A stretch of DNA of 64,000 bases, taken from Actinotalea sp. Marseille-Q4924. GTDB taxonomy: Bacteria > Actinomycetota > Actinomycetes > Actinomycetales > Cellulomonadaceae. Below, in pieces: positions 38,068 through 62,512 of the stretch (its first letter is position 1; each line of letters opens with the position of its first letter). The stretch lies in assembly GCF_916618755.1 (NCBI RefSeq), contig NZ_CAKAKB010000003.1:1178001-1242000 (forward strand). The letters run 5' to 3'. A program made the translations under genes and the position numbers. The notes beneath the pieces were generated by a model that worked only from the letters and a program-made list of their open reading frames with translations, ran no database searches and had not been told where the DNA came from.

Positions 38068-38085
38068 CTTCAGCGAACCTTGACG
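38068..38085 (+). promoter_or_regulatory. CopR-like tandem repeat, site 1
   Basis: CTTCAGCGAACCTTGACG matches 14 of 18 positions of the consensus CTTCATCGRACCTTCATC (half-sites 11 bases apart). It lies 76 bases before the Lgt-like fusion gene. This is the most degenerate site of the seven together with 52555 and 62495. Confidence 0.45.
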
Positions 38086-38161
38086 CTTCCCGAGTGAGCA
38101 GCGCAGGGTTCCCTCGGCATCGTGGGGCCGGCATCTGTTCCAGGTCCTACGAGAGGCGACC

Positions 38162-39592
38162 ATGGCACGTCGATCAGCCAAGAGGCGAGCCCCGGGGGCG
38201 CGGAAGACTTCGCCGGCACGTCCCCGATCAGAGACCCCCCGGTCTGACCGCTCGGCACACGATACGGCTCATCCTCCGGCACAGGCGCCGATCCATCCAC
38301 TGCCGCTCCGTGTCCCCCTGCTCGCTGTTCCCCGGCCGGGCGCTTCCCAGCGCCAGGCACCTCCACCCGACGTACCCCGGCCGAAGAACACCAGCACAGC
38401 CAGTAGCACCTCCGTCGGCCGCACTCCGAGCCTGGCCCCGGGGCCGGCACCGTTGCCTGCCGCACAGCCGATGCCGCGGCTGGCACGGGTCAGCGGTGCG
38501 GGCGGCACAGCAGGCGCTGTGGAGTTCGTCAAGGCACCGTTCCCCTTCATGGGCGAGCTGCGACCCCATGCCTTAGGCATCACCTACTGGTTCGATCCTC
38601 CGACCATGCCGGTTCCGTATGAGGTGGTGGTCCGCCTCACCGGCCGTCGCCTCGACGTCGAAGGTGCCCGGACCCCCTCCGATGACTTCGTCGTTGTGGC
38701 GACGCTCGCAGAGGTCCGGCCAACCAGCGGTCGGACGGCCTTGACGCAACGCGTTGTGGGGAAGGCTCCTGGGCGCTGGCACGTCACGGCGGACGCCCTG
38801 GCGAGGGTGAGCTCCGGTGGCGACCGCAAGGAGGTCGTGCGACTGCCCTCTGCGGAGGCCGTCGGAGCGTCGACCTTCACGGCGGTGGCAACGATGCGGG
38901 CGCCGGGGGTTCTGCTGGGTGCCTGGCCTGCGATGGTCGGCCTCGGGGTTGTGATGGCCATCATCCTGCAAAGCGTCCTTGCACGGGTCCACGGCCTCGC
39001 ATCCGGCAAGGTCCTGGGCGTTGCCCTCGTAGCCAGCGTCCTGGGCGCTCTCGGCGCGAAGGTGTACTACCGGCTTACTCACCTGAAGGAGCGCGCGAGG
39101 CCAGTGTTCTCGGGCCTGAGCGTTCAAGGTTTCGTCATCGTCGCCACAGCCACCTTCGTCGTCGGCGGAGCCGTTCAAGGCCTCGCTGTCGGGCACCTCC
39201 TGGACGCCACGGTGCCCGCACTCCTCGTCGGTCAGGCCGTCGGCCGGCTCGGCTGTCTCCTTGCCGGATGTTGTGCCGGGGTCCCTACGAGCTCGCGATG
39301 GGGTCTTTGGTCATCCGACCGTCGCGTGGGGACCCGTCGCCTGCCGGTGCAGCTCATGGAGGCGGCTGCGGCCGCAAGCCTCGCGGTAGTGACCACAGTC
39401 ATCGCGTGGCGGGTACCGCCGTCGTGGGCAGGCCTTCTCTTCATCGGTGGGCTCGCGGGATACGTCCTCGCACGCCAGCTCCTGTTCCCTCTTCGCGGGC
39501 TCCCACGATCGACCCGGCACGGGCGCCACGTCACCATGACGTTGGCTGCGCTGACGCTGGTCGGCACACTCGGGGCAGCTTTGGTCGCCTGA
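38162..39592 (+). CDS. prolipoprotein diacylglyceryl transferase-like protein with N-terminal extension
   Basis: A 476-residue protein, far longer than Lgt (about 270). A basic, Pro/Ser-rich stretch (1-110) is followed by a soluble beta-rich domain (about 120-240; PFPFMGELRPHALGITYWFDPPTMPVPYEVVVRLTGRRLDVE) and then a membrane part of six to seven helices. That part contains VGRLGCLLAGCCAG, WGLWSSDRR and RRLPVQLMEA, the divergent Lgt signature seen in Lgt-like proteins. GAGAGG precedes the ATG. Lgt transfers diacylglycerol to the lipobox Cys. Whether this version does so is unclear; the double CC in the active region and the fused outer domain hint at a metal or redox role. Confidence 0.7.
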   Translation: MARRSAKRRAPGARKTSPARPRSETPRSDRSAHDTAHPPAQAPIHPLPLRVPLLAVPRPGASQRQAPPPDVPRPKNTSTASSTSVGRTPSLAPGPAPLPAAQPMPRLARVSGAGGTAGAVEFVKAPFPFMGELRPHALGITYWFDPPTMPVPYEVVVRLTGRRLDVEGARTPSDDFVVVATLAEVRPTSGRTALTQRVVGKAPGRWHVTADALARVSSGGDRKEVVRLPSAEAVGASTFTAVATMRAPGVLLGAWPAMVGLGVVMAIILQSVLARVHGLASGKVLGVALVASVLGALGAKVYYRLTHLKERARPVFSGLSVQGFVIVATATFVVGGAVQGLAVGHLLDATVPALLVGQAVGRLGCLLAGCCAGVPTSSRWGLWSSDRRVGTRRLPVQLMEAAAAASLAVVTTVIAWRVPPSWAGLLFIGGLAGYVLARQLLFPLRGLPRSTRHGRHVTMTLAALTLVGTLGAALVA

Positions 39593-39863
39593 CGCGGCCG
39601 GATCGCGCGCGCATGAGCCGCTGCCTCCTTGCCGGTGTGCTGCGGCTCGGCAACTTTGTCCACCACGGTCCGGCCACAGCCCGCGATGCCGCTGACGGCG
39701 TCGGTCGCCGTCAACGGACCGCGAAGTCGGCCCGTCCATATCCAGGCCTCCCAGTCCCGTCGCCGGCCATCGCTCCCGCGAACAGCCGCGCCAACTTCGA
39801 TGGAACCCTTGGCTCCCGCCATCCGGATTACGGACGGACAGCTCTGAAGGCGGTCGCCGGGAC

Positions 39864-40262
39864 TCACTCCAGATGTCGTCGCAGGAACGCAAGCAACTCC
39901 AAGCCCTCGGGAGTGGGCACCGACCCACGACCGGCGCAGTCTGGGCACGGGCGGCTCCGCGGCTCGTCTGGGCGTGCGCCTGCATGAGCGGTCAACCGCT
40001 CCTCGATCAGTCGCTGCAAGACGGGCTCCTGCAGCGCGCCCTCCCACATCTTCGCCAGTGGGACGCGTTCGCGGTCCCAGCGTTCCCAGACCTCGCTAGG
40101 CAGGTCCCCCATGCCGTCACACGACGAACACCACTGCTCGAAGCGGGCGGCGAGTGGTTCGTCTGCGAACGAAAAGCCGGTCACGTCGCCCTGGCCCTGT
40201 CGGCACTGCACCGAGGTAGCTGTTCGAGAAGGTTGCGTCGCCTCAGACGCGTCCCACGGCAC
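39864..40262 (-). CDS. small protein with two CxxCxGxG zinc-finger motifs
   Basis: A 132-residue hypothetical protein. It contains two DnaJ-type cysteine motifs, CSSCDGMGD (about residue 44) and CPDCAGRG (about residue 107), which could form one zinc site. The N-terminal 25 residues look non-native. A neighbouring frame upstream (to 40,474) has plausible protein sequence (LAPAQLRLLEREIERP), so the gene may be frameshifted near 40,200-40,260. Function unknown. Confidence 0.45.
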   Translation of the reverse strand: MPWDASEATQPSRTATSVQCRQGQGDVTGFSFADEPLAARFEQWCSSCDGMGDLPSEVWERWDRERVPLAKMWEGALQEPVLQRLIEERLTAHAGARPDEPRSRPCPDCAGRGSVPTPEGLELLAFLRRHLE

Positions 40263-40475
40263 AGCGGCTCGGGACGCCCTCCGCCACTCGGGTCCCCTGA
40301 GGCGTCAGGTTCTTGGGCAGCGACGAACTGGTGCAGCGTCAGGGGACGTGACCGTCCGCCAGAGGCGGGGCGCTCGATCTCACGCTCCAGGAGCCTGAGC
40401 TGTGCGGGGGCCAGGAGACCGGCCACTACGCCTGGTGCGCCATCGACGGCCGCACGGACCGGGGCGGGCGCCATG

Positions 40476-42976: not shown

Positions 42977-43255
42977 CTAGCTCCGCACGAGCCGGGCGAT
43001 GGCGTCGGTGGCTTCCTTGAGCTTGGCGTCCTTCTCCTGCCCACCGGCCTGTGCGGCGTCGACCAGGCAGTGGCTCATGTGGTCCGCGAGCAGTCCCAGC
43101 GCCACGGCCTGCAGTGCACGTGAGGCGGCAGAGACCTGCGTGAGGATGTCGATGCAGTACTTGTCGTCTTCGACCATACGGGCGATCCCGCGGACCTGGC
43201 CCTCGATGCGGTGCAACCGGACCAGCAGGTCCTGCTTCGGGTCGGTGTCGGTCAT
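42977..43255 (-). CDS. csoR: CsoR copper-sensing repressor
   Basis: A 92-residue all-helical CsoR/RcnR-family repressor. The Cu(I) ligands are in place: C34 (KYCIDILTQ), H59 and C63 (ADHMSHCL). The DNA-facing LLVRLHRIEGQVRGI is conserved. The ATG at 43255 follows AGGAGG; the longer frame is not needed. It lies between two copper ATPase genes in the same operon and should autoregulate through the ATACC..GGTAT box at 46365-46381. Confidence 0.95.
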   Translation of the reverse strand: MTDTDPKQDLLVRLHRIEGQVRGIARMVEDDKYCIDILTQVSAASRALQAVALGLLADHMSHCLVDAAQAGGQEKDAKLKEATDAIARLVRS

Positions 43256-43329
43256 CACGTCCTCCTGCCGGAAGGTCCCCGGGGCGCCGCGGCTGTCACC
43301 TCCCGCGACGCCCCGGGGCTTCACCGGGG

Positions 43330-46107
43330 TCACGGCGCCACGGCGGTGGTGTAGCGGGCGGGGTCAGCGCGGAAGCTGTCCGCGCAGTGGTCGGAGCAGA
43401 AGTGGTAGGTCTGGCCCTCGTGCTGGGCGGTGCCGGCTGCCGAGGCAGGGTCGATCCTCATCCCGCAGACCGGGTCGGTCACCTTCTGGGGCTTGTCGGA
43501 CATGGCGTGCTCCGTTCCGTCGTGAGCGTCGTTCCCTATCTCCACCACCGGGTCGGTGGCGGCGACCTGGACGGCCTCGGGCAGCGGCCGTGGGGTGAAG
43601 GTGCGCAGGCGGTTGGCGTTTGCGACCACCGACAGCGAGGACAAGGCCATGGCCGCCGCGGCGATGATCGGGCTGAGCGTCCAGCCCAGTGCCGGGTACA
43701 GCACACCCGCCGCGATCGGGATGCCGATCGCGTTGTACATGAACGCGAAGACCAGGTTCTGGCGGATGTTGCGCATGGTGGCCCGGGACAGGTCGACCGC
43801 GGTGACCAGACCGGAGAGCGCACCGGAGATCAAGGTGATGTCGGAGGACTCGATCGCCACGTCGGTGCCGGTGCCGATCGCCGATCCGACGTCCGCCTGG
43901 GCCAGGGCCGGTGCATCGTTGATGCCGTCCCCGACCATCCCGACCACACGCCCCTCGGCCTGGAGCCGCTGCACCTCGGCCGCCTTGTGCTCAGGCATGA
44001 CCTCGGCCACGACGCGCGTGATGCCGACCTGACGAGCGATCGCGGCGGCGGTGGCCCGGTTGTCCCCGGTCATCATGATCACGTCGATGCCGCGCATCTG
44101 CAGCGCGGCGATGGCGACCGCGGAGCCTTCCTTGAGGGTGTCGGCCACGCCGATCACGCCGGCGAACCGCCCGTCGACGACCGCGAACATCGGGGTCTTG
44201 CCGTCGGCGGCGAGGCGGTCCGCATCGCGGGTCCGGGCGGTGACACCGACGCCGTCGAGCAGGCGCCTGTTCCCGACCAGGACCTCGCGGCCCTGGACCA
44301 GGGCGCGGACGCCTTGACCGGTCACCGCGTCGAAGGCGCTGGCCTCCGGCAGCTGGATCCCGCTGTTCAGAGCGCTGGTCACGATCGCCGCCGCCAACGG
44401 GTGCTCGGAGGAGCGCTCCACCGCCGCGACCAGGGTGAGGAGCTCGACGTCGGTGAACCCGCCTGCGGGGAGCACGTCGGTCAGCGCCGGGGCGCCCTTG
44501 GTGATGGTCCCGGTCTTGTCCAGCACGACGGTGTCGAGCTTGTGGGCCGACTCCAGCGCCTCGGCGGAGCGGATGAGGATGCCGGCCGTCGCACCCTTGC
44601 CCGTGCCGACCGTGATCGACAGCGGTGTTGCCAGCCCCAGGGCGCAGGGGCAGGCGATGATCAGTACGGACACGGCCGCCACCAGCGCGAAGACTGAAGC
44701 CGGCGGTGGGCCCACCAAGGCCCAGATCACGAAGGTCCAGATCGCGATGCCGATGACCGCCGGGACGAAGTAGCTCGAGACCCGGTCCACCAGACGCTGG
44801 ATGGGCGCCTTGGAGCCCTGCGCCTGGCGCACGAGGCGGATGATCTGCGCCAGCATCGTGTCCGCACCGACCTTGGTCGCGGTGTACCGGAAGGCCCCGG
44901 TCTGGTTGATCGTCGCGCCGATCACGGGGTCACCCGGGCCCTTGGTGACCGCGATCGGCTCACCGGTCACCATGGACTCGTCGACCGCGGACGCGCCCTC
45001 CACCACCTCCCCGTCGACGGGAAGCTTCTCCCCGGGCCGGACCACCACCACGTCCCCGACGACGACCTCGTCGAACGGCACCTCGAGCTCGTCGCCGTCA
45101 CGGATCACCCGTGCGGTCCGCGGCTGCAAACCGATCAGCGTCCGGATCGCCTCCCCGGTGCCGGCCTTGGCCTTGGTCTCCAGCAACCGGCCCAGCAGGA
45201 TCAGCGTGATGATCACCCCGACGGCCTCGTAGTACACCTCCCGGGTCTCCTCAGGCAGCAGCCCCGGGGCGAACGTCACCACCAGGCTGTAGCCGAAGGC
45301 TGCGATGGTGCCCAGCGTGATCAGGGAGTTCATGTCCGCGGTGCGGTGCGACAGCGCAAGCCAGCCGGTCTTGTGGATGGGCCAGCCGGTGTAGAGCATC
45401 ACCGGGGAGATGAGGACCATCTGCAGCCACGGGTTCATCAACGCGTCAGGAACCCACATGGCATTGAAGAGCTCCATCGCCATGACCGCCACCAGCACCG
45501 GCAGGGTCAGCACCGTCCCGGCGACCACCCGACGACGCAGGTCCGCGATCTCGGCGGCACGCTCCCGCTCCTCGGAATCCGCATCCTCGGTCACGGCGGG
45601 CGGCTGCTCGGGGCGCGACGGCTCGTGCCCGGCCGGACCGCGCGTGGATGCACCGTCGTCGAGGGCGCTGTCGCGGCCGGCCAGCCGCTCAGCGAGCGCA
45701 ACACCACCACCACCGGTCCCCGGCTGGGGCGACTCGCTGACGACTCGTACCCGCCCGTGCAGCATGTTCATCCCACACGCGAAGGCGTACTCCCCCGGCA
45801 CAGTCGACGTGAACTCCACGGCGGTCGTCGCGTACGCAGGTAGACTTTGGTTGATCTTGAAGTCCGGGAGCAACACGCGAGACGAGCAGTCACCGCTCTC
45901 CTGCCGGTCGAACACCAGGCGCACCGGAACACCGGACACGACCTCGACGAGGTCAGGGCTGTAGCCGCCGCGCACCGTGACCACGACCTGCTGCAACCCA
46001 TCGGCGACGTCAGCGCGCCTGGACTTCTTCGGACCGAAGAAGTACCACCCCAGCAGCGCCGTGAGGACGACACCACCCACAACCACTGACAACTCGAAAC
46101 CGCTCAT
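43330..46107 (-). CDS. copA: CopA-like copper ATPase fused to cupredoxin (N) and YHS (C) domains
   Basis: A 925-residue three-part protein. (1) An N-terminal membrane anchor ([17 protein letters not shown]) and a cupredoxin-like domain (about residues 35-125) with a likely Cu site ([12 protein letters not shown] to [11 protein letters not shown]). (2) A full Cu ATPase core: [12 protein letters not shown] (C486, C488), DKTGT (D530), [28 protein letters not shown], and the copper-pump signatures [15 protein letters not shown] and [16 protein letters not shown]. (3) A C-terminal YHS domain ([22 protein letters not shown]). No HMA domain is present; the separate HMA protein encoded just upstream with an overlapping stop may supply copper. 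Probably exports Cu(I). Confidence 0.92.
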
Positions 46108-46352
46108 CTCGGCACCTCCGCGGACTCGGTCGACTTCGGGGCGGTCAACGAGAACCCAGCGTCCTCGACCACTGCCTGCACAGTCCGGCGCTCAGGGGTC
46201 GAGCCAGCGAGGACAACCAAGCGGGATGCACCACCGGCGACAAGTTCGACCCGGACCCACCGCACTCCGGCCAACGAGCGAACCCGCTCCATCAACAAGG
46301 CCAGGCAGGCGCCACACGTCAGACCCCAGACCCTGTAGCTCTTCCGTCTCAC
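46104..46352 (-). CDS. copZ: HMA-domain copper chaperone (CopZ-like)
   Basis: An 82-residue protein made almost entirely of one heavy-metal-associated domain: metal loop GLTCGACLA, then [29 protein letters not shown]. It lacks the usual Met before the first Cys. The GTG at 46352 has GGAGGTGG about 5 bases upstream. Its stop overlaps the start of the copA-like gene. It is the first gene of the copper operon and likely delivers Cu(I) to the pump that follows. Confidence 0.85.
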
Positions 46353-46423: not shown

Positions 46424-46441
46424 GATGAAGGTCCGATGAAG
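46424..46441 (-). promoter_or_regulatory. CopR-like tandem repeat, site 2
   Basis: GATGAAGGTCCGATGAAG on the plus strand (CTTCATCGGACCTTCATC on the minus), a perfect 7-base direct repeat with an 11-base period. It is 72 bases upstream of the copper operon, behind the CsoR box. The operon may thus be activated by the two-component system and repressed by CsoR. The rest of this 380-base gap shows no gene. Confidence 0.65.
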
Positions 46442-48713: not shown

Positions 48714-48818
48714 CGTGTCTCCTCGGGTCGGTCGGACGGCGGCTGCCATATGCCGTCGATGACCTCTCGACGCTATGGACACGCTCGACGGCGCGCACGC
48801 CGAGGAACCATGACGACG

Positions 48819-48836
48819 ATGAAGATCCGATGAAGC
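48819..48836 (-). promoter_or_regulatory. CopR-like tandem repeat, site 3
   Basis: GATGAAGATCCGATGAAG on the plus strand, differing from site 2 in one base. It is 106 bases upstream of the copper-storage gene on the minus strand. The remaining part of this 355-base gap holds no supported gene. Confidence 0.65.
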
Positions 48837-49998: not shown

Positions 49999-51167
49999 CG
50001 GGTCTCCCGGAAGGCGGTCGCCGCGTCGATGGCGGCGATGCGTCGGAGCGGCCACAGGGCGGCGATCAGACCGACCGGGAGCGCCGTGGCAGTGGTCTGC
50101 GCGACCGCGGTTGCCGTGATGGTCACCTGGACGGCAGGAGCCGCCGTCGGAAGAAGCCAGGCAAGTGCCAACGCAGCCGTCGTGGCCACCGCCGAGGCCA
50201 GGACGACGGTCAGGACGACTTGCATGGCGACCGCACCGGCGAGGCGCGGGGTGCGGGCGCCGAGGGCTTTCAGCACGGCGAAGTCCCGCAGCCGGTTCAA
50301 GGTGGCGGTCATCAGCCCGAGAGCAATGACAGCGAGCGCGATGACCAGCCCGATGGTGGACATCAGTCGGAGCAGGTCGGCGCTCATGTCGGTGACGACG
50401 CGCGCCTCGGACTCAGCGAACCGCTCCCGGCTCTGCACGGTGACTCCGTGGACCTCTGCCCGGATGCGGTCGGCCACGGTTCTCGGGTCGGCACCTGCGT
50501 CGAGGCCTGCGAGCACGTAGGAGACCCGGTCGTCGTGGATGCGAGCGAACTCGGCGCGGTCCACGAACACGGTGGTGTTGGTGATGCTGCTGCCGCCGGT
50601 GGAGAACCCGACGGCACGCACCGGCATGCCCATCACCGTGAACCGGTCTCCCAGGCGGATGCCGAGCCGCTCCGCAGCCTGTTCGTCGAGGATCGCCTCC
50701 CCGGCGCCTGGGGCGCGGCCGGCCACCAGCCCACTCGGGCCACCGCGACCTGCGCGGGTGTCGTAGCCGATCAGGTATGTCAGTTGGCGCCCCTGAGGTC
50801 CGCCTGCAGAGCCGGAGGCAAATGCGATCGGTGCGGCCCAGGCAACGCCCGCCACTTGGGCGATGCGCGCGGGTGCGTCGCCTGGGAGCGTCGAGGCAGA
50901 CATGTGCATCGTCCGCACCCCGGCCTGCGAGACGAACACGTCGGCCGGCGAGGTACGGATGTAGTACGTCACCCGGTCGACGGCGCCGGCGAAGATGCCA
51001 CCGAGGACAAAGACAAGCAGCAAGGACGCCGCCACGCCGAGGACGGTCAACGTGGCGCGCCGCCGGTCCGCAAAGAGGAAGCGCCGCCCCACAGGCACAG
51101 ATCCGGTCCGGCGTGACCGCCGGGTCCGGCTTGGCGGCGGCACCGCAGGGACGGACGTGGTGGTCAT
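49995..51167 (-). CDS. ABC exporter permease (FtsX/MacB type) 1
   Basis: A 390-residue permease with one N-terminal membrane helix (LTVLGVAASLLLVFVLGGIF), a large extracytoplasmic domain, and three C-terminal helices of the FtsX family (IGLVIALAVIALGLMTATLNRLRDFAVLKALGA). It starts four bases inside the stop of permease 2. With permease 2 and the YHS-ATPase it forms a complete exporter; MacB-type systems move lipoproteins, peptides or metal complexes rather than free ions. Confidence 0.88.
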   Translation of the reverse strand: MTTTSVPAVPPPSRTRRSRRTGSVPVGRRFLFADRRRATLTVLGVAASLLLVFVLGGIFAGAVDRVTYYIRTSPADVFVSQAGVRTMHMSASTLPGDAPARIAQVAGVAWAAPIAFASGSAGGPQGRQLTYLIGYDTRAGRGGPSGLVAGRAPGAGEAILDEQAAERLGIRLGDRFTVMGMPVRAVGFSTGGSSITNTTVFVDRAEFARIHDDRVSYVLAGLDAGADPRTVADRIRAEVHGVTVQSRERFAESEARVVTDMSADLLRLMSTIGLVIALAVIALGLMTATLNRLRDFAVLKALGARTPRLAGAVAMQVVLTVVLASAVATTAALALAWLLPTAAPAVQVTITATAVAQTTATALPVGLIAALWPLRRIAAIDAATAFRETR

Positions 51168-52285
51168 CGTCCGCTCCGGAATGCTGAGGCGGCATCGAGC
51201 CGGCTGAGCCGGTGCACTGGCAACCATGCCGCTAGCACCGCCATCACGGCCGCTGCAGCGGCGGTCTGCGCCATCGTGCGGGCGGTCAGCAGGACGGGGA
51301 AGGCTGGCCGCCACCACGCGAGGATCTCCCTGGTGAGCACCAGGAGGACGACGGCGGCGAGCGTGCCGAGGACCGTCAGGGTTACCGTCTGCGCCACGGC
51401 GATCCGCCGCAGTCGCGCTGGGGTAGCGCCGAGAGCCTTGAGGACGCCGAGGTCGCGTTCCTGCTCGGTGACGCGGGTGTAGGCCACGAGCGCGACGATG
51501 AGGGTGCCGGCGACGAAAGCGACCCCGACCATGAGCCGGACCGGCGAGCCGTAGATGTCCGTGGCGAGCTGCAGCGACGCTTCCCTCAGCTGTGCCGGAG
51601 TCCGCACGGAATACCCCTCGGCCCGCAGACGTGCTGCGACGGCTGCGGGTTCGTCGGTGGTGACGAGAACCGCGCCGGTCGTGCCGGTGGCCCCCAGCAT
51701 CTGGTCCATGCCGGAGGTGCTGGTGAACAGCAAAGGGGTCATGAAGAGGGCGGTGTCGTCGGTCAGCCCGACCACGTTCATCTGGTGTCCGAGGATCGGC
51801 AGCAGGTCGCCGATCTCGATGTTGTGCTGGTCGGCCCACAGGACGTCCACGACCACCTCGTCGGCGGCCCGAGGAGCCCTACCGGCGCTGAGCGCCCACG
51901 GGCCGCCCAGACCACTGGTGGGATCGAAGGCGACCGCGGCGACGGCGGCTTTGCCGTGCGGCAGCTCGAGGATCTGGTAAGCCGTCCGCAGTGGCGCTGC
52001 TGCCGTCACGCCCGGTGTCTGGGCGACGCGGTCCACCGTGGGTGCGGGCAACACACCGGGGTCGGCGAAGAGGCTGCGGGTGCCGGCCGGGACGACGACC
52101 AGGTCGGCACCGAGGTGGTCGTCGTAGGTGGTGACGCGGTCCTGGACGCCGACCCAGAGGCCGGCGAGCAGCAGCATCAGCATCAGTGCGAGCCCGATCC
52201 CACTGGCACCCGCCGCTGTGAGCACCGGACGGGAGATGAGGAAGCGACGGCTTATCGGGACCGGTCCATCGCTGCGGCGTGTCAT
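51164..52285 (-). CDS. ABC exporter permease (FtsX/MacB type) 2
   Basis: A 373-residue permease with the same architecture: N-terminal helix (LALMLMLLLAGLWVGVQ), an extracytoplasmic domain (MacB-like, with GADLVVVPAGTRSLFA), and FtsX helices near VAYTRVTEQERDLGVLKALGATPARL. First gene of the three-gene exporter operon. The site at 52555-52572 lies 270 bases upstream. Confidence 0.88.
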   Translation of the reverse strand: MTRRSDGPVPISRRFLISRPVLTAAGASGIGLALMLMLLLAGLWVGVQDRVTTYDDHLGADLVVVPAGTRSLFADPGVLPAPTVDRVAQTPGVTAAAPLRTAYQILELPHGKAAVAAVAFDPTSGLGGPWALSAGRAPRAADEVVVDVLWADQHNIEIGDLLPILGHQMNVVGLTDDTALFMTPLLFTSTSGMDQMLGATGTTGAVLVTTDEPAAVAARLRAEGYSVRTPAQLREASLQLATDIYGSPVRLMVGVAFVAGTLIVALVAYTRVTEQERDLGVLKALGATPARLRRIAVAQTVTLTVLGTLAAVVLLVLTREILAWWRPAFPVLLTARTMAQTAAAAAVMAVLAAWLPVHRLSRLDAASAFRSGR

Positions 52286-53127: not shown

Positions 53128-54753
53128 TCACGCCCTTCCGCCCCCTCCGCGCAGTCGAGACCGGCCGAAGGCGGCGGTGGCCAGAAGCGTCAGCGCGGCA
53201 GCGTCGATCATCCCCGTCGGCCAGGCACCGAGGCGGTCCGCCAGGGTCAGGGTCGTCCGGAGCGGCAGGTCCGCAATCATCTGATCGCTGGTGAACAGCG
53301 CGGTGCGGTCGAGGACCGCACCGTCCGGCGCGATCACGGCGCTGACGCCCACGGTCGACACCTGGACGGTCGCCCGGCCGTGCTCGACGGCGCGGAACCG
53401 CGACATGGCCAGCTGCTGGGTCGACTCCTGCGTCAGACCGAAGGAGGCGTTGTTGGTCGGGATGACGATGAGCTCGCCGCCGGCGACGACGGACTCGCGG
53501 ATGAGGTCGCCGTATGCGACCTCGAAGCAGATCGCGGTGGCGACCCGGACCGGCCGACCGAGCGCGGCGATCGGCACGTCGAGCACACCCGTCGCGCCGC
53601 CGGCGGCCATGTCGGTGGTGACCCGGTCGACATCGGGTGAAAGTCGCCGGAAGAAGTCGCGGCACGGGATGTACTCACCGAACGGCACGGGCCGCTGCTT
53701 GGTGTAGGCGTCGGTGCCACGTGAACCAGGTGGCCACACGAGGTAGTCGTTGTACCGGGCGCGGTCGGCGAACCGCTGGGTGCCGAGCAGGATGGGGGCG
53801 CCCGCGTCGCGGGCGATCGAGTCGATGGCACCCGCGAGCTCGTCGTCCGTGCGGGGGTCGATGTCCGAGGCGCTCTCCGGCCAGACGACGAGGTCCAGGG
53901 CTCCCACCCCGGCGTCGCGCAGCAGCGCGCGGGTACCCGCCACGTGGTTTGCGGCCACCGCCCGTGCCTGTGAGGTCGCATCGGCGCCGCGGGTGGGAAC
54001 GTTACCTTGGATCGCACCCACGACCAGGGTCCCGGACTCCGCCGCCGTGGGCGTTGGCACCAGCGACGGGGCGAACGTGAGGACGACGGCGGTCGCCAGC
54101 GGGGTCGCGATCCGACCGACCGGGGCGCGGCACAGCCAGCGCGTCGCACCGACGGCGAGGAGCGCACCGATCGCGGCAGTGACTGCGCTGACCACCGTCG
54201 TGCCCCCGACCGACGCGAGCGGCATCAGGGGACCGTCGGTCTGGGAGAACGCGAGAAGTCCCCAGGGGAAGCCACCGAAGGGGACCCGCCCACGGAGCTG
54301 CTCGATCGCCGTCCAGAGGATCGCCACGACGGCGACCTGCACCAGGTCATGCCGGGCGACGAACCGCGTACGGCGCACCGCGACCCATGCCGCACCGAAG
54401 AGCCCCACGGCGGTCGACTGCAAGGCGGCGAGCGCGATCCACCCGATGGGCGCTCCCACGGCTGCGTCGGCCCACCAGAGGTGTGGCAGGAAGAACGCGA
54501 GTCCGAAGACCGCAGCAGTGATGAAGCCGCGCGGGATCGAGTCCCGCCGCAGCGCGAGGACCAGCAGCGCCATGCCCACGTACGCCATAGGCCACCAGGA
54601 CTTGCTCGGGAACGCGGTCTCGGTGACTAGTCCGCCCAGGGCCCCCGTGCACAGAGCCGCCCATGGCGGGAGGGCGCGCCATGGACGGCTCTGAGCGACC
54701 GGAGGTGCCGGCGAGGCGCGACGACGCTCAGTGGTGCTGGTGCTCAATGGCAC
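53128..54753 (-). CDS. lnt: apolipoprotein N-acyltransferase Lnt (intact copy)
   Basis: A 541-residue Lnt of full family length. About seven membrane helices are followed by the GRVPFGGFPWGLLAFSQTDGP motif and a nitrilase-fold domain holding the Glu-Lys-Cys catalytic set: VVWPESASDID, DAYTKQRPVPFGEY and TAICFEVAYG. It N-acylates lipoproteins at the outer face of the membrane. The GTG start overlaps the small His-tailed membrane protein gene. It closely resembles the frameshifted copy at 3,661-5,372 in motif wording. It likely matures the DUF305 lipoprotein encoded nearby. Confidence 0.93.
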   Translation of the reverse strand: MPLSTSTTERRRASPAPPVAQSRPWRALPPWAALCTGALGGLVTETAFPSKSWWPMAYVGMALLVLALRRDSIPRGFITAAVFGLAFFLPHLWWADAAVGAPIGWIALAALQSTAVGLFGAAWVAVRRTRFVARHDLVQVAVVAILWTAIEQLRGRVPFGGFPWGLLAFSQTDGPLMPLASVGGTTVVSAVTAAIGALLAVGATRWLCRAPVGRIATPLATAVVLTFAPSLVPTPTAAESGTLVVGAIQGNVPTRGADATSQARAVAANHVAGTRALLRDAGVGALDLVVWPESASDIDPRTDDELAGAIDSIARDAGAPILLGTQRFADRARYNDYLVWPPGSRGTDAYTKQRPVPFGEYIPCRDFFRRLSPDVDRVTTDMAAGGATGVLDVPIAALGRPVRVATAICFEVAYGDLIRESVVAGGELIVIPTNNASFGLTQESTQQLAMSRFRAVEHGRATVQVSTVGVSAVIAPDGAVLDRTALFTSDQMIADLPLRTTLTLADRLGAWPTGMIDAAALTLLATAAFGRSRLRGGGGRA

Positions 54754-54976
54754 CGTCGCGGTCCCTCACCTCGGTGTCCGGCCGGTCCTGAGCGGCACCC
54801 TGACCACTGTGGCCTGCGTGACCGCGGCTCATCATCCACATCATGCCGACCATCATGAGCGGGCAGACCAGCAAGATCGCCCACAGGCCGGCGTTCCCCA
54901 CGTCGACGCCTGCGACCAGGAGCGCGGCGAAGATGACGGCTCCCCCGATCAGCATGTGCTTCGAATGACCTTTCAT
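54728..54976 (-). CDS. small Met/His-rich membrane protein (DUF2933-like)
   Basis: An 82-residue protein: a basic start (MKGHSKHML), two membrane helices (LIGGAVIFAALLVAGVDV, LWAILLVCPLMMVGMMWMMSRGHAGHSG) dense in Met, and a His-ended tail (GAIEHQHH). DUF2933-type proteins of this sort sit in copper and multi-metal clusters. The role is unknown but metal binding is plausible. The ATG overlaps the upstream SHOCT-protein stop (ATGA). Confidence 0.75.
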   Translation of the reverse strand: MKGHSKHMLIGGAVIFAALLVAGVDVGNAGLWAILLVCPLMMVGMMWMMSRGHAGHSGQGAAQDRPDTEVRDRDGAIEHQHH

Positions 54977-55215
54977 GGTCTTCCTCCCGTTGTTGTCGCG
55001 GACTGCGCCGCGAGCTCCTCCCGGACGGCCCGGTAGGTCGCCGGATCGATGTCACCGGCGGCCAGGCGCGCGTCCAGGATCGAGCGTGCGTCCGCCACAG
55101 GCTGTGCCGGGAAGAGTCGACTGACACCCCACACGACGACCACGACGACGACGACCCAGAAAGCAATCATGGACAGCCAACCGCCGGCGCCCATCTGGCC
55201 GCACCAAGGACCCAT
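54973..55215 (-). CDS. small membrane protein with C-terminal SHOCT domain
   Basis: An 80-residue protein. A short start (MGPWCGQMGAGGWLS) and one helix (MIAFWVVVVVVVVWGVSRLF) are followed by a SHOCT motif (ARSILDARLAAGDIDPATYRAVREELA). Such proteins are frequent next to DUF305 and copper genes. ATG chosen at 55215 (GGTGGAGA upstream) rather than the longer frame. First gene of the SHOCT/DUF2933/lnt operon. Confidence 0.8.
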   Translation of the reverse strand: MGPWCGQMGAGGWLSMIAFWVVVVVVVVWGVSRLFPAQPVADARSILDARLAAGDIDPATYRAVREELAAQSATTTGGRP

Positions 55216-55483
55216 TGCCGTCTCCACCTGTTCCCGAGGCGCCGGGGTCGGCACCTGCAGCCACCCTCGCCGAGTCGGATCAAGAACCCGCACCTGTCCC
55301 GTGAAGACTTGCTGAAGGTCAAGACGTGGTGCCTCGTTCACGTACGGCGAAGCGCCCTCGACCGTGGCTCGTGGCTTGAATCGTCGGCCCGCCTACCGGC
55401 TCCCCGGCGTCCGGGATGCTGGCCCACCAGTCGGCCACCACGCCTTGGCAGTGATGTGTGTGTGTCGCTCAACCCCACGGCGC

Positions 55484-55501
55484 CTTCATCGAACCTTCAT
55501 C
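55484..55501. promoter_or_regulatory. CopR-like tandem repeat, site 5
   Basis: CTTCATCGAACCTTCATC, matching the consensus at all positions, 116 bases before the DUF305 lipoprotein gene. It sits in the 401-base divergent gap shared with the SHOCT/lnt operon on the other strand. No gene is seen in the gap. Confidence 0.68.
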
Positions 55502-56300: not shown

Positions 56301-56318
56301 CTTCATCGAGCCTTGATC
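56301..56318 (+). promoter_or_regulatory. CopR-like tandem repeat, site 6
   Basis: CTTCATCGAGCCTTGATC, 17 of 18 positions of the consensus, 107 bases upstream of lgt. Confidence 0.6.
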
Positions 56319-57243: not shown

Positions 57244-57647
57244 TGGACACCGGCGTCATGGCCCGGGTTCTCACCGGTCGCCGCTCGCTCGCCCGCCGGG
57301 ACACCTGGACCCGGGAGGAGCTCCTGGCATTCCAGCAGCACCGTCTGGAGGCCGTGCGCGTCCACGGGTTGCAACGGTCACCGTTCTACCGACGCCAGCT
57401 GACCGGTCGGGAATCGGCACCACTGAACGATCTGCCCCCGGTCTCCAAGGCTGCCCTCATGGCCCAGTTCGACGACGTCCCGACCACGCGCGACATCCGG
57501 CTCGCGGATGTCGAAGGGCATCTCCGGGACCTGACCACGACCGATGGTGACCCGGGGCGACCGCTGCATCACCGATGGTGGACAGCTGCGACCGCGGGCA
57601 CGACAGGGCGCCGCGGCGTCTTCCTCTGGGACCGGCGAATGCTGTGA
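57243..57647 (+). pseudogene. N-terminal fragment of a PaaK-like adenylate-forming enzyme
   Basis: 134 residues with the start of phenylacetate-CoA ligase-like enzymes: LLAFQQHRLEAVRVHGLQRSPFYRRQL, LPPVSKAALMAQFDDVPTTRDI and an ATP-loop-like TAGTTGRRGVFLWDRRML. It then stops at about one third of the usual length, before the acyl-adenylate core. The ATG at 57243 follows directly on lgt. Probably a decayed passenger captured between lgt and yibE/F; a shortened functional protein cannot be excluded. Confidence 0.6.
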
Positions 57648-57664
57648 CACCACGCCCAGGGGTC

Positions 57665-58969
57665 ATGCCCAGCGACGGCGCGCACGATGTGACCAGCCGC
57701 TCTGACGGTGCAGCCGGGGGTGCGCCTGTCGCACAGAGGAGGCGTCGGCGGTTTCATCGCACGACGCTGGTCCTGGCGACGCTCCTGGCCCCGATCGCCG
57801 CTCTGACGGGCCTCGGACTGGGAGAGTTCTGGCCCACCGACGACCCGCCGGCGACAGGCGTCGTCGCGGTGGCCGCCGAGTACCCCCAGGCCGAGGTCGT
57901 CGATGCGTCCAGCGAGATGTGTGGCGGCTCGAACGAGGACCGCCGACCGGACGGGTCCATCCCTGCGGAAGTGGACTGCACCCTTGTCACCGCACGGGTC
58001 ACCACCTCCGACGCTGTCGGGCAGACGGTCCAGGTCTGGGCCCCGGCTCTGATCCGCCCGCAGGACCTCGCGCCCGGGACCACGGTCGTCCTGGTCAGGT
58101 ACCTGCAGACCGCTGACGAGCCGGAGGCATGGGCGTGGTACGACTACGCCCGCACCGTGCCGCTGGGGGTCCTGGCTGTGTTGTACGGGGTCGTCGCCGT
58201 CGCCGGGATGCGGGGACTGCGCGCTCTCCTCGGTCTGGGCTTCGCTTCGGTCGTCATCGCCGTGTTCGTGCTTCCGGCTCTCCTCCAAGGCAGCGATCCG
58301 CTGCTCGTGGGGCTCACTGGCTCCTCCGCGATCATGTTCGTCGTCCTGTACCTCGCCCATGGACTCTCACGACGGACGACAACGGCACTGCTGGGCACCT
58401 TCGCCGGGCTGGGCGCGACCGCAGTGCTCGGTGTGGTCGCGGCAAGGTCGGCACGGATCAGCGGCATCTCGGTCGAGGAGAACTATCGCCTGGCGCAGCT
58501 GACCGGGAACCTGGACGGCACAGCACTGCGCGGCCTGTTCCTGGCCAGCGTCGTACTGGCAGGCCTGGGAGTCCTGAATGACGTGACGATCACTCAGGCC
58601 TCCGCCGTCTGGGAGCTGCGTGCAGCGGACCCCGATGCGGGTGTCGGCGACCTGTTCTCGCGCGGCATGCGTATCGGGCGTGACCACATCGCCTCCACGG
58701 TGTACACGATCGCGTTCGCCTACGCCGGCGCAGCGCTGCCCGTCCTCCTCCTCGTCCAGGTGTACCGCCTGCCGGTCATGCAGATGATCGGGAGCGGAGA
58801 GTTCGCCGAAGAGATCGCACGCACCCTTGTCGGCTCGATCGGGCTGGTCCTCGCCATCCCACTGACCACGATCATCGCTGCACTGGTCGTCGCTACCGAG
58901 CCCGAGCGCCGCGGCCGCCACACTCAGCCAGGCAGTGGGGGGCACGGCCACTCCCACGCCGGTCATTGA
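57665..58969 (+). CDS. YibE/F-family membrane protein
   Basis: A 434-residue protein. One N-terminal helix (TTLVLATLLAPIAALTGLGL) is followed by an extracytoplasmic domain with a Cys pair (SEMCGG, VDCTL), then about seven helices of the YibE/F family (TVPLGVLAVLYGVVAVAGMRG, NDVTITQASAVWELRA, GRDHIASTVYTIAFAYAGAALPVLLL). The tail is His-rich (GGHGHSHAGH). Transport substrate unknown. The His tail and regulon context suggest metal-linked transport. The ATG at 57665 has AGGGG upstream; an in-frame GTG at 57644 is possible. Confidence 0.85.
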   Translation: MPSDGAHDVTSRSDGAAGGAPVAQRRRRRFHRTTLVLATLLAPIAALTGLGLGEFWPTDDPPATGVVAVAAEYPQAEVVDASSEMCGGSNEDRRPDGSIPAEVDCTLVTARVTTSDAVGQTVQVWAPALIRPQDLAPGTTVVLVRYLQTADEPEAWAWYDYARTVPLGVLAVLYGVVAVAGMRGLRALLGLGFASVVIAVFVLPALLQGSDPLLVGLTGSSAIMFVVLYLAHGLSRRTTTALLGTFAGLGATAVLGVVAARSARISGISVEENYRLAQLTGNLDGTALRGLFLASVVLAGLGVLNDVTITQASAVWELRAADPDAGVGDLFSRGMRIGRDHIASTVYTIAFAYAGAALPVLLLVQVYRLPVMQMIGSGEFAEEIARTLVGSIGLVLAIPLTTIIAALVVATEPERRGRHTQPGSGGHGHSHAGH

Positions 58970-60310: not shown

Positions 60311-60451
60311 TCAGTGCGCGGACCGACCACCCCCGCAGCACGCGTGGCTCTTCGCACTCGTCGCTTCGGCCTCCGGCTCAACCTCGGAGCCGTCACTGAC
60401 CTTTGCGGCGCGGCAGCACTCGCCGGTCTCCTCGGTACAACAGGTGCTCAT
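60311..60451 (-). CDS. 46-residue Cys-rich peptide (metallothionein-like)
   Basis: A tiny gene at the end of the redox operon. The product has three CC pairs and a His near the end: MSTCCTEETGECCRAA, a Glu-rich middle, and SHACCGGGRSAH. GAGAGGA lies about 9 bases before the ATG, the gene is 40 bases after the redoxin stop, and a strong hairpin follows the stop. Six Cys in 46 residues suggest binding of soft metals such as Cu(I), like a small metallothionein. No family was recognised. Its size would make automatic annotation likely to miss it. Confidence 0.6.
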   Translation of the reverse strand: MSTCCTEETGECCRAAKVSDGSEVEPEAEATSAKSHACCGGGRSAH

Positions 60452-60491
60452 CGCACTGTCCTCTCGTTCGCAGATGAAGAATGTCGGTGGC

Positions 60492-61118
60492 TCACAGCCG
60501 GCTCTGCACCTCCTTGAGGAGGTCTTGCGGCGCGAGCCACATGGACGGGTAGTTGCCGTACCACTGCTGGACGCCCTCGGCGTCGATCAGGATGAACCCG
60601 TGACCGGGCAACCCTTCGTGCATCCCGGTGCCGAGCGTGCCGTACTGCTCCGACACGGTGCCGTCGTCGAGGAGGAAGTCCGCGGTCACGCCCAGGCGTG
60701 CTCGCTCGGCGTTGATCTGCTCTGCGGTGTTCATCACGATCGGCAGCACGGTGATCCCCGCTTCCGCGAAGGCGGGATCCTTCTCGATCTCGGCCATCTG
60801 CATGAGGCAGGAGTCGCAGCCGGCGCCCTCGTTGAAGTAAAGGACAACCGGCGAGCCCCGCAGTGAGGACAGGGTCACCGTCTGTCCGCTCGAGGTCGGG
60901 AGAGTGAAATCGGGTGCGACGCGGGCCTCGGATGACATGACCGGTCGGGAGGAGATGAGCGCCGCTGCCACAAGGGTGACGACGATGACAAGCGCGGCAC
61001 CCCATGCGGCCAGGCTGATGCGGTGCCGGCGTTTGGCGACAGCTTCCTGCGCGTGGCGAATCTCGTCGAGCATCTGCTGGCGCTCGGCCAAGCGTCGCGT
61101 CGCTGTTCCGGATGTCAT
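60492..61118 (-). CDS. membrane-anchored redoxin (AhpC/TlpA-like)
   Basis: A 208-residue protein: a charged helical start (RRLAERQQMLDEIRHAQEAVAKRRHR), one membrane helix (ISLAAWGAALVIVVTLVAAALIS) and a redoxin domain (APDFTLPTSSGQTVTLSSLRGSPVVLYFNEGAGCDSCLMQM) with a CDSC active site instead of the usual WCxxC. C-terminal HGFILIDAEGVQQW. Probably a thiol reductase or copper-loading factor outside the membrane, supplied by the CcdA-like protein whose gene overlaps its start. Confidence 0.85.
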   Translation of the reverse strand: MTSGTATRRLAERQQMLDEIRHAQEAVAKRRHRISLAAWGAALVIVVTLVAAALISSRPVMSSEARVAPDFTLPTSSGQTVTLSSLRGSPVVLYFNEGAGCDSCLMQMAEIEKDPAFAEAGITVLPIVMNTAEQINAERARLGVTADFLLDDGTVSEQYGTLGTGMHEGLPGHGFILIDAEGVQQWYGNYPSMWLAPQDLLKEVQSRL

Positions 61119-62110
61119 GGGACCACTTCTTCCTCGGTGGCGGTGCTGTGGCAGGTGGGTGCACTGGTGCTGCTGGGAACGTCATCCACTGCGGCCTCGC
61201 CGTCAGAGCCGTGGGTCATGGAAGTGACGTTCGCCGCCCCGTGCCGCTGTCGGCGACGATCAGCGAGAGTGACCCACACGAACGCGGTCGCCACTGCGAG
61301 CAGACCGAGTCCGAGCACCGGCTCGGGGACGGGGCTCACCCAGGTCTGAACCGCCAGGAACGCGTTGGTCAGAGTGCTCGCGGCGACGTCCTGCGCTTCG
61401 GTCCCGCCGGTCATGTCCGTGTCACCGGCGAGGGCGATGACGAAGGCACCCATGACGACGAACCCGACCGACACGGCGATGTTGAGCGTGTTCGTGACGA
61501 TCGTGCGTCCGGCGATCCGGAGTCGGACCGGGCGCGCCCGCAGAGCCTTGCGCTCCCCGAGCCGGGCCTTGTCCCAGATCAGGGCCATGACGAACAGGGG
61601 GAAGACCATGCCGAAGACGTAGGCGAGGCCCAGGGCGAGGCCCCCGACGGCCGAGCCGGACAAGACCGAGAGGGTCATCACGCCGGCCAGGACGGGTGCG
61701 CAGCAGCTCGAGGCGATTCCGGAGAACACCCCGAGTGAGAAGAAGCTGGCGCTGTCCCCGCGTGAGGTGTCGGGAGCGCGCAAGAAGCTGGGCAGCGACC
61801 ACATGGTGCCGGAGAAGGACAGGACCGCCAAGGCGAACATCAGCACGCCGCCGGCGATGTAGAGCGGGACGTGGTACCGGGCGATCGCACCGGCCAGCAG
61901 GCTCATGCCGAGGGTGATGGGGACCAGGACGACAGCCAGACCCGCAGCGAAGATAAAGGTGAGCGGCAGCAGCCGCCAGCGGCGGTTCTTCACCGCGCCG
62001 GCCAGGTAGCTGGGCGCCAGGAACACGATGCAGCACGGCGCGAACAATGCGACCCCGCCGGCGAGGAACGCCGCCAGGATGCTGCCCGTGGTCAACAGCT
62101 CGGCGCCCAC
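61115..62110 (-). CDS. CcdA/DsbD-like transporter with paired cysteines
   Basis: A 331-residue polytopic protein with about eight hydrophobic segments. The two CcdA-type redox motifs appear as CC pairs: FAPCCIVFLAPSYLAG (where CcdA has SPCVLP) and ASSCCAPVLAGVMTL. The cytoplasmic tail is His/Ser/Glu-rich (SSTSAPTCHSTATEEEVV). The GTG start is one base after the glutaredoxin-like stop. It may shuttle electrons, or Cu(I), to the redoxin encoded next. The paired cysteines set it apart from classic CcdA. Confidence 0.82.
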   Translation of the reverse strand: MGAELLTTGSILAAFLAGGVALFAPCCIVFLAPSYLAGAVKNRRWRLLPLTFIFAAGLAVVLVPITLGMSLLAGAIARYHVPLYIAGGVLMFALAVLSFSGTMWSLPSFLRAPDTSRGDSASFFSLGVFSGIASSCCAPVLAGVMTLSVLSGSAVGGLALGLAYVFGMVFPLFVMALIWDKARLGERKALRARPVRLRIAGRTIVTNTLNIAVSVGFVVMGAFVIALAGDTDMTGGTEAQDVAASTLTNAFLAVQTWVSPVPEPVLGLGLLAVATAFVWVTLADRRRQRHGAANVTSMTHGSDGEAAVDDVPSSTSAPTCHSTATEEEVVP

Positions 62111-62111
62111 C

Positions 62112-62420
62112 TCACACGCTCACGGCGGAGGCGGACGCGCTCGGGAGTACGCGGCCGGTCAGCAGCTTGACCAACTTCTTGCGCGGCAGTCGGCCCGAGC
62201 TGAAGTACGCACCGTCGACCACGACGAGCGGGTTCATCGCGGGCCGGTGCTGCGCGACGAGCAACGCTCCTTCGGTCGACTCCAGCTCCACGACCCGTAC
62301 CGTCAGGGGCCACCTCTGCCCGAGGTCAGCCAGGGCGTCAACGGCGTCTTCGCAGAGGTGGCACGCCGGCGCATGGACGACGGTCACGTGGACCGGCGCG
62401 GACTCAGGTGGCGAGGTCAT
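62112..62420 (-). CDS. glutaredoxin-like thiol protein
   Basis: A 102-residue glutaredoxin-fold protein (VHVTVVHAPACHLCEDAVDALADLG, active site CHLC; later MNPLVVVDGAYFSSGRLPRKKLVKLL with the cis-Pro region). It likely reduces or relays thiols in the cytoplasm for the CcdA-like transporter. The ATG at 62420 has GGAG upstream. First gene of the minus-strand redox operon; a CopR-like site is 75 bases upstream. Confidence 0.85.
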   Translation of the reverse strand: MTSPPESAPVHVTVVHAPACHLCEDAVDALADLGQRWPLTVRVVELESTEGALLVAQHRPAMNPLVVVDGAYFSSGRLPRKKLVKLLTGRVLPSASASAVSV

Positions 62421-62494
62421 GGAGGTCTCCAGAGGCAAAGGGTGGTCGATCCCCACCAGGTTCCCGACGTCGTGCTGCGCCCCGGTCTTCGTTC

Positions 62495-62512
62495 GATCAA
62501 CGTTCGGTGAAT
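62495..62512. promoter_or_regulatory. CopR-like tandem repeat, site 7
   Basis: GATCAACGTTCGGTGAAT, 13 of 18 positions of the consensus (reverse orientation). It is in the divergent gap between the glutaredoxin operon (75 bases) and the response-regulator gene (61 bases). Suggests autoregulation. Confidence 0.45.

What the first reader, a model, noticed from the sequence alone, without database searches (positions are those of the whole stretch)
38068..62512. A seven-site CopR-like tandem-repeat regulon spanning island 2
An 18-base direct repeat (consensus CTTCATCGRACCTTCATC, half-sites 11 bases apart) occurs at 38068, 46424, 48819, 52555, 55484, 56301 and 62495. Each is in a promoter gap 61-116 bases from a start codon. 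It precedes the Lgt-like fusion, the copper-pump operon, the Csp-like gene, the small membrane protein/exporter, the DUF305 lipoprotein, lgt, and the glutaredoxin operon/response regulator. The half-site spacing suits an OmpR-type dimer, and the TGAAG core recalls the tandem CopR box of Corynebacterium. This ties Lgt, Lnt, YibE/F, the YHS-exporter and the Cys-rich peptide into one stress response.
Basis: partly seen in the sequence, partly recalled or inferred. Interest (0 to 1): 0.85.

Follow-up and report, generated by a model that had tools for sequence, protein, structure and literature searches.

The report
Copper regulon including lipoprotein-processing genes
In an actinobacterium, one type of DNA tag, like the known binding site of a copper-responsive switch, sits in front of copper pumps and copper-binding proteins and also of a spare set of enzymes that attach fats to surface proteins, which would make an old suspected link between copper and protein lipidation testable.

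Summary
The genome has 14 matches at up to 3 mismatches and none for the reversed pattern; 11 of the 14 lie at metal loci, including a second locus with a 75%-identical regulator. In 44 loci of this genome and relatives, 176 sites were found, none inside a matched gene. The matrix also finds, one base off, the CopR box of Corynebacterium glutamicum on plasmid pLEW279b. Best reading: a CopRS-type copper regulon, larger than the single-site one described in C. glutamicum.

The new part is content. A box lies 84-145 bp before 11 of 12 copies of a divergent, island-type Lgt (10 of them at 23.8 bits or more) but before 0 of 29 housekeeping-type Lgt copies; the eighth site heads an operon ending in Lnt. 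Copper-induced lit2/lgt2 in Listeria is a precedent, so this is a new variant of a known kind. Binding, copper response and effects on lipidation are inferred, not shown; silver, cadmium or zinc response is unsupported.

The parts
38068..38085 (+). CopR-like box 1, before the Lgt-like fusion gene
   Evidence: 27.0 bits; 22.4 with the outside matrix
38162..39592 (+). Lgt-like fusion (LGT domain at residues 257-451)
   Evidence: PF01790
40476..42932 (-). P-type ATPase with HMA domain, last gene of the pump operon (no CPC/CPH motif found)
42977..43333 (-). CsoR-type metal-sensing repressor
   Evidence: PF02583
43330..46107 (-). P-type ATPase (CPC motif) with cupredoxin-like and YHS domains
46104..46352 (-). 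CopZ-like small protein, first gene after box 2
   Evidence: HMA E 0.0004 but under Pfam's cut-off; GLTCGAC
46424..46441 (-). CopR-like box 2, before the copper-pump operon
   Evidence: 36.4 bits
47631..48281 (-). membrane protein with DUF305 domain
   Evidence: PF03713
48315..48713 (-). DUF326 (Csp-like, Cys-rich) protein
   Evidence: PF03860 E 1e-16; start chosen
48818..48835 (-). CopR-like box 3, before the DUF326 gene
   Evidence: 31.5 bits
49069..50055 (-). ABC ATPase; weak YHS match at its C-terminus (under Pfam's cut-off)
51164..52285 (-). FtsX-type permease
   Evidence: PF02687
52555..52572 (-). CopR-like box 4, before a small uncertain ORF and the FtsX/ABC genes
   Evidence: 27.4 bits
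53128..54753 (-). Lnt, with Glu, Lys and Cys that fit the catalytic triad
   Evidence: PF20154 and PF00795; residues read (triad recalled)
54728..54976 (-). small His/Met-rich membrane protein, overlaps the lnt reading frame
   Evidence: no Pfam match
54973..55215 (-). SHOCT-like small membrane protein, first gene of the lnt operon
   Evidence: homology; SHOCT match only sub-threshold (E 0.014)
55300..55317 (-).
   Evidence: 24.0 bits; 27.0 bits with the outside matrix; same place in relatives
55484..55501 (+). CopR-like box 6, before the DUF305 lipoprotein
   Evidence: 35.2 bits
55545..56249 (+). DUF305 protein with lipobox LAAC (start may be the second Met, 55617)
   Evidence: PF03713 E 7e-46; sequence
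56301..56318 (+). CopR-like box 7, before the second Lgt
   Evidence: 33.7 bits
56425..57243 (+). divergent, island-type Lgt
   Evidence: PF01790 E 6e-48
57575..58969 (+). YibE/F protein, downstream of lgt, no own box here
   Evidence: PF07907
60492..61118 (-). redoxin, third gene of the Grx-CcdA-redoxin group
   Evidence: PF00578
61115..62110 (-). CcdA-like transmembrane protein
   Evidence: PF02683 hit just under Pfam's cut-off
62112..62459 (-). glutaredoxin-like protein (start uncertain)
   Evidence: sub-threshold Glrx-like match; its C2 homologue passes PF05768's cut-off
62495..62512 (-). CopR-like box 8, between Grx and the response regulator
   Evidence: 30.2 bits
62573..63280 (+). OmpR-family response regulator, CopR-like
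   Evidence: PF00072 and PF00486; tree
63277..64000 (+). CopS-like histidine kinase, runs past the window end
   Evidence: L012:1277-2389

Best explanation
The repeats are operator boxes of a CopRS-type copper two-component system. The kinase beside the window's response regulator (short outer loop with conserved histidines) senses copper outside the membrane; the phosphorylated regulator binds as a head-to-tail dimer to two TTCA half-sites 11 bp (one helical turn) apart, upstream of the promoter, and activates transcription. In this genome it controls copper pumps (P-type ATPases), a CopZ-like chaperone, DUF305 and Cys-rich proteins, an exporter, a glutaredoxin/CcdA/redoxin set, its own genes, and a second lipoprotein-processing set: a divergent Lgt, an Lgt-like fusion and an Lnt. 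The likely purpose of the last is to lipidate and N-acylate copper-binding lipoproteins made under copper stress, the N-acylation also removing a copper-binding free amine at the membrane surface. Shown by computation: the boxes, their placement, conservation and link to this type of regulator. Inferred: binding, copper as the signal, activation, and the purpose of Lgt and Lnt.
For: Genome: 14 matches at up to 3 mismatches vs 0 for the reversed pattern, 11 of the 14 at metal loci. A matrix from 6 outside sites ranks the window sites first, and a matrix from the 7 window sites finds the 5 sites of the C2 locus and the C1 site. 176 sites of 18 bits or more in 44 loci, 762 kb (13 of them training sites, one counted twice because L012 overlaps the window): 136 within 400 bp of a matched module gene start, 0 inside a matched gene; reversed matrix 0 hits, shuffled columns 0,0,0,10,2,0. 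Orientation is fixed for several genes: Lgt 9 of 9 and Grx 20 of 20 in the same sense, RR 0 of 31. Known CopR box recovered on pLEW279b, one base from the EMSA-defined box. Of 34 regulators in a tree, 17 have a box of 17 bits or more upstream: all 4 of the CopR group, all 12 of the window's group and one neighbour. In 37 family genomes the motif occurs in 13 of 16 with an RR of at least 65% identity and 0 of 21 without (Fisher 1.6e-7). Kinase loop FHxHM...HAE shared with CopS. Copper genes around: CPC/CPH pumps, CsoR, DUF305, multicopper oxidases in relatives.
Against: No binding or expression data. The regulator is only 55.6% identical to that of pLEW279b, and their two groups are not joined in the tree (unresolved fork; the window's group has 84/89 support). 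By eye the DNA-recognition helix does not single out box-bearing regulators. A third related regulator in the genome (55%) has no box at its own promoter but might still bind. Six places of 18.2-22.4 bits outside the metal loci turned up among those examined; no full matrix scan of the genome was possible, and weak sites such as that at the HMA gene (L012:2729, 18.1 bits) are doubtful. Relatives' stretches were chosen because they hold the box or the regulator. 40 of 176 sites had no matched gene within 400 bp. P-ATPase sites face either way (4 same, 12 opposite).
Confidence: 0.85

Rival explanations
1. The boxes belong to a wider envelope or thiol stress regulon whose signal is not copper itself but silver, cadmium, zinc or oxidised thiols.
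For: Glutaredoxin, CcdA and redoxin genes are in the regulon; M23 peptidase and FtsX permeases are envelope genes; CPC pumps can also move zinc or cadmium (recalled).
Against: The kinase loop matches CopS, four CPC pumps carry MxxSS and one pump is CPH (copper link recalled), DUF305 binds copper in Synechocystis, and the C. glutamicum copRS deletion is reported sensitive to copper only (passages).
Confidence: 0.1
2. The boxes are bound mainly by the paralogous regulator on C2 or by the third regulator (C3:1250109), and the window regulator is a secondary copy acquired with the island.
For: The C2 regulator is 75% identical and has two boxes at its own promoter; both loci share one box type, so cross-binding is expected.
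Against: The window regulator has its own box and kinase, and a 95% identical counterpart in G143; the third regulator lies apart in the tree with no box (7.0 bits).
Confidence: 0.25
3. Lgt, Lnt and the Lgt fusion are co-regulated passengers of the island with no copper role.
For: Clustering by horizontal transfer can bring unrelated genes under shared promoters; the Lnt and fusion boxes were seen in one genus only; the fusion departs from the usual Lgt sequence.
Against: The island Lgt has its box at a similar distance in four genera while housekeeping-type Lgt copies have none (0 of 29); a Cellulomonas plasmid carries the same gene set; copper-induced lit2/lgt2 in Listeria and copper accumulation on Lnt depletion in E. 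coli (passage) point to function.
Confidence: 0.25
4. The repeat is a mobile-element remnant or chance in GC-rich DNA.
For: Direct repeats can come from insertions, and the window has an IS trace (ALIL element).
Against: 0.06 expected vs 5; 97 matches vs 0 control in 200 genomes; little information outside the box in 53 de-replicated sites; sites lie before genes.
Confidence: 0.01

Closest known systems
CopRS of Corynebacterium glutamicum (PMC3140484 and PMC3353115, passages read)
   Same: OmpR-type regulator and short-loop kinase, tandem box with TGAAG cores 11 bp apart, box between the regulator and a divergent copper operon; P-type ATPase, multicopper oxidase and thioredoxin-like partners.
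   Different: The published regulon has one box in the genome; here 14 at three loci plus one past the window. Regulator 55.6% identical to the pLEW279b copy. In the passages read, no Lgt, Lnt, DUF305, YibE/F or Csp-like gene is named in the CopR operons.
Copper-induced lit2-lgt2 element of Listeria and Enterococcus (Armbruster 2019, not held; known from passages of PMC8275575, PMC8689077, PMC7387801)
   Same: A second lgt and an enzyme that modifies the lipoprotein N-terminus travel with copper-resistance genes on mobile DNA and are induced by copper.
   Different: N-acylation there is by Lit2 (intramolecular transfer); here by an Lnt-type enzyme. Different phylum. At E 1e-12 the island Lgt hits one plasmid record only, from Cellulomonas.
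CopMRS of Synechocystis (PMC4335983, passages read)
   Same: Copper two-component system controlling a DUF305 copper-binding protein.
   Different: Efflux by an RND system; no lipoprotein-processing genes mentioned in the passages read.
Copper cluster of Pseudarthrobacter AG30 (PMC6256500, whole text read)
   Same: Multicopper oxidase, prolipoprotein diacylglyceryl transferase and CopD genes beside a csoR-copZ-copA operon in an actinobacterium.
   Different: Gene list only; no box, response regulator or Lnt described.
CsoR regulon (recalled)
   Same: A csoR gene lies in the pump operon.
   Different: CsoR is recalled to repress from inverted repeats; the boxes here are direct repeats tied to a response regulator.

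Membership tests
CopR (C. glutamicum-type) regulon | tandem direct-repeat box with TGAAG cores 11 bp apart | tested here: met
   matrix trained on this genome finds the pLEW279b box, one base from the published one
CopR (C. glutamicum-type) regulon | OmpR-family regulator with the box at its own promoter | tested here: met
   PF00072 and PF00486; box of 30.2 bits at its promoter
CopR (C. glutamicum-type) regulon | regulator groups with CopR in a tree | tested here: inconclusive
   two separate groups (98/99 and 84/89) at one unresolved fork
CopR (C. glutamicum-type) regulon | kinase with short histidine-bearing outer loop | tested here: met
   VFHAHM and HAEAAF aligned with LFHDHM and HAEQAY; the pLEW279b loop equals the published CopS loop letter for letter
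CopR (C. glutamicum-type) regulon | copper-dependent binding and activation | not testable with these tools
   needs EMSA and reporter assays
copper-induced lipoprotein-modification element | extra lgt beside copper genes under copper control | tested here: inconclusive
   extra lgt and box present; copper control inferred only
copper-induced lipoprotein-modification element | Lit-type transacylase present | not tested
   no search for Lit was made; an Lnt is present
Lnt family | LNT_N plus CN_hydrolase domains with E-K-C triad | tested here: met
   both domains over cut-off; VVWPES, YTKQ, AICF, matched to the triad from memory
CsoR operator | inverted repeat (recalled) | tested here: not met
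   the site is a direct repeat

The most novel reading that the evidence does not exclude
Some Actinobacteria carry a copper-switched second lipoprotein-maturation pathway: CopR-type boxes turn on a dedicated Lgt clade and an Lnt, so that under copper stress newly made copper-binding lipoproteins are fully N-acylated and the surface amine that can hold copper is masked. It would be a separately evolved counterpart of Listeria Lit2 and would help explain why E. coli lnt was first found as the copper gene cutE.
Probability: 0.4. Interest if true: 0.78.

Novelty: new variant of a known kind. Interest (0 to 1): 0.62.

Why it matters
It extends the single-site CopR box of C. glutamicum to a many-site regulon found in several actinobacterial families, so that membership can be proposed from sequence. 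It places lipoprotein-lipidation enzymes under that box, beside lipoproteins of a copper-binding family. That gives a testable system for the published but unproven idea that lipoprotein N-acylation protects cells from copper (PMC7387801 discussion passage).

Tried and rejected
Controls: reversed pattern 0 of 1 genome, 0 in 200 genomes, 1 match in 394 genomes; reversed and shuffled matrices. At low thresholds the matrix is not specific: at 8 bits 102 hits vs 17 reversed and 11-49 shuffled. A relaxed core pattern with 2 mismatches was too loose (200 hits vs 49 control); only its 0-mismatch class was used, 7 of 7 of which are boxes at metal loci (places compared). Rfam found no RNA element at the boxes and ARAGORN no tRNA.

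Considered and dropped: CsoR as the binder (direct, not inverted repeat); RR2 (C3:1250109) as the main regulator (no box at its promoter). Comparing recognition helices by eye did not discriminate. A -10-like signal downstream of same-sense sites (A in 22 of 53 and T in 30 of 53 de-replicated sites) fits activator placement but was not tested against local composition. The plasmid search with the island Lgt found one record of 72,556 at E 1e-12, too strict to judge descent from Listeria lgt2. Papers: searches listed no title or abstract describing a CopR-type box before lgt or lnt in Actinobacteria; the library lacks most subscription papers. A first pass at Lgt/Lnt upstream regions assumed a wrong locus orientation and was redone. 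Structure prediction was not used. For the regulator tree 17 of the 80 loci were used, and 13 of the 70 plasmid records were fetched.
Full report
OBSERVATION. The pattern CTTCATCGRACCTTCATC occurs five times in the window at up to 3 mismatches (0.06 expected in shuffles); the other two listed sites match with 4. In the whole genome (3.64 Mb, 6 contigs) there are 14 matches at up to 3 mismatches and none for the reversed pattern. Eleven of the 14 lie at metal loci: five in the window, five at a second locus on C2 (L009), and one before a CPH-type P-ATPase on C1 (L010). The other three (C1:879129, C3:269465, C4:363168) score 21.8-22.4 bits and look like background; C3:269465 lies inside a gene that reads, by eye, as an isoleucyl-tRNA synthetase. 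The C2 locus holds a DUF305 lipoprotein, a P-type ATPase, a regulator 75% identical to the window's, a glutaredoxin and CcdA.

INDEPENDENT TEST. A 23-column matrix from the six sites outside the window puts the seven reported sites and one new site (55297-55319, minus; core 55300-55317) in the first eight places of the window (20.7-33.8 bits; next 19.9). It gives 24 places of 14 bits or more against 2 for the reversed matrix. The matrix from the seven window sites finds the five C2 sites and the C1 site. The new site lies 93 bp before a SHOCT-like gene that is followed by a small His/Met-rich membrane protein and Lnt. The SHOCT name rests on homology to genes so annotated; the Pfam match is sub-threshold. 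The same order and spacing recur in G107, G143 and G154 (L200, L205, L209), and box, SHOCT-like gene and small protein without Lnt in L214, L217, L223 and L230. With it the genome has 14 boxes at three loci (8 window, 5 on C2, 1 on C1), plus one of 23.5 bits before an M23 peptidase past the window (L012:7335).

RELATIVES. In 200 genomes of the family (own included), 47 have a match at up to one mismatch, 97 matches by my count, none for the control. In 394 genomes of the class (own included) it is 15, with one control match. Among the 37 family genomes covered, the motif occurs in 13 of 16 with a regulator of at least 65% identity and in 0 of 21 without (Fisher 1.6e-7; relatedness not corrected). 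The three exceptions (G125, G005, G016) have boxes by matrix (L222, L230, L231). I read 40 stretches of relatives plus four stretches of this genome: 176 sites of at least 18 bits (13 training sites, one of them counted twice), 136 with a matched module gene starting within 400 bp, 40 without, none inside a matched gene; reversed matrix 0, shuffled 0,0,0,10,2,0. Genes outside my reference set were not called, so 'inside a gene' covers matched genes only. The stretches were chosen for holding a box or the regulator. Orientation is fixed for Lgt, Grx and RR, nearly so for the SHOCT-like (22 of 23) and DUF326 (14 of 15) genes, and mixed for P-ATPases (4 same, 12 opposite).

LINK TO CopR. The C. 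glutamicum CopR box is TGAAGATTTgaTGAAGATTT, defined by EMSA with mutated fragments (PMC3140484, passages). [quoted passage not shown] On 13 annotated plasmid stretches, checked by eye, 19 sites of 20 bits or more fall between annotated genes (15) or over the annotated 5' end of a regulator or SHOCT gene (4). Three of the 13 (Kocuria, C. halotolerans, S. mirabilis) have no good box at the regulator, and Cryobacterium only a weak one (17.0 bits). In a tree of 34 regulators, 17 have a box of at least 17 bits upstream: all four of the CopR group, all twelve of the window's group, and Janibacter; the other 17 do not (highest 16.3). The two groups meet at an unresolved fork, so common descent apart from the others is not shown. 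The kinase loop shares FHxHM and HAE with CopS; the pLEW279b loop equals the published C. glutamicum loop.

LIPOPROTEIN ENZYMES. This genome has three LGT-domain and four LNT_N hits. In G000 and 24 relatives there are 53 LGT hits; I examined 49 upstream regions, leaving out three low-scoring hits for which no locus was given and a truncated one (G151). Housekeeping-type copies (209-233 bits): 0 of 29 have a box within 1000 bp. Island-type copies (156-184 bits): 11 of 12 have one 84-145 bp upstream in the same sense, ten of them at 23.8 bits or more and one (G147) at only 18.1; the twelfth has its nearest 921 bp upstream, before DUF305. Low-scoring copies (77-108 bits, fusions among them): 3 of 8, at 656-866 bp from the domain match, which fits an N-terminal extension (Fisher 3.8e-9 for 11 of 12 vs 0 of 29). 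The island type was seen with its box in four genera (g1, g6, g18, g20). In a tree of 34 Lgt it forms a fully supported clade with that of Cellulomonas plasmid p110066. That plasmid carries the same cassette: lgt, YibE/F, RR-HK, Grx-CcdA-redoxin, DUF305, P-ATPase-lnt, multicopper oxidase, metal-sensitive regulator. Of 30 LNT_N hits in G000 and 12 relatives (three with under 600 bp of upstream sequence), 8 have a site of at least 18 bits 180-972 bp upstream, all in genus g1; the one at 972 bp may belong to another gene. On plasmids, 24 of the 40 listed lnt records are also among the 60 listed regulator records, mostly Rhodococcus and so not independent; in the one read (L191) the lnt has no strong box.

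MECHANISM. Shown: box, placement, conservation, link to the regulator type. Inferred: copper sensing by the kinase, dimer binding, activation. For Lgt and Lnt the likeliest use is lipidation and N-acylation of induced copper-binding lipoproteins, with masking of the N-terminal amine, an idea proposed for Listeria Lit2 (PMC8689077 and PMC7387801 passages). A DUF305 protein binds copper in Synechocystis (PMC4335983 passages).

NOVELTY. The box, the two-component system and a copper-linked lgt are each known (also a gene-list mention in Pseudarthrobacter). The many-site regulon and an Lgt-Lnt pair under CopR-type boxes did not appear in the listings. Hence a new variant of a known kind.

Noticed in passing
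window 3775-5195 (-): A further lnt-like match in the left part of the window comes in two separate pieces, with DUF305 and a P-type ATPase match nearby (8071-13726) but no CopR-like box of 18 bits or more; it may be interrupted.
   Followed up: no
L012:7335-7357 (-), genome C3 just past the window: A 23.5-bit box 121 bp before an M23 peptidase gene; sites also stand before M23 genes in L209, L214, L215 and L236: the regulon probably includes a cell-wall peptidase.
   Followed up: partly
window 19930-20061 (-): Rfam ALIL pseudoknot (RF01497, 79.5 bits), an insertion-sequence frameshift element by recall.
   Followed up: no
L104, C2:269032-269060: A 22.4-bit site with a weaker one 11 bp away, outside the known metal loci; gene context not examined.
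   Followed up: no
L012:10022-11886: A second response regulator/kinase pair (55% identical regulator) close to the first, with no box at its promoter; what it controls is unknown.
   Followed up: partly
window 38162-39592: Lgt-like fusion with an N-terminal extension of about 250 residues and a divergent LGT domain; boxed here and in some relatives, possibly a changed activity.
   Followed up: partly
L192, L193 (Kocuria and C. halotolerans plasmids): CopR-like regulators without a box, near genes annotated as heparan-alpha-glucosaminide N-acetyltransferase-like; they may use another operator.
   Followed up: no
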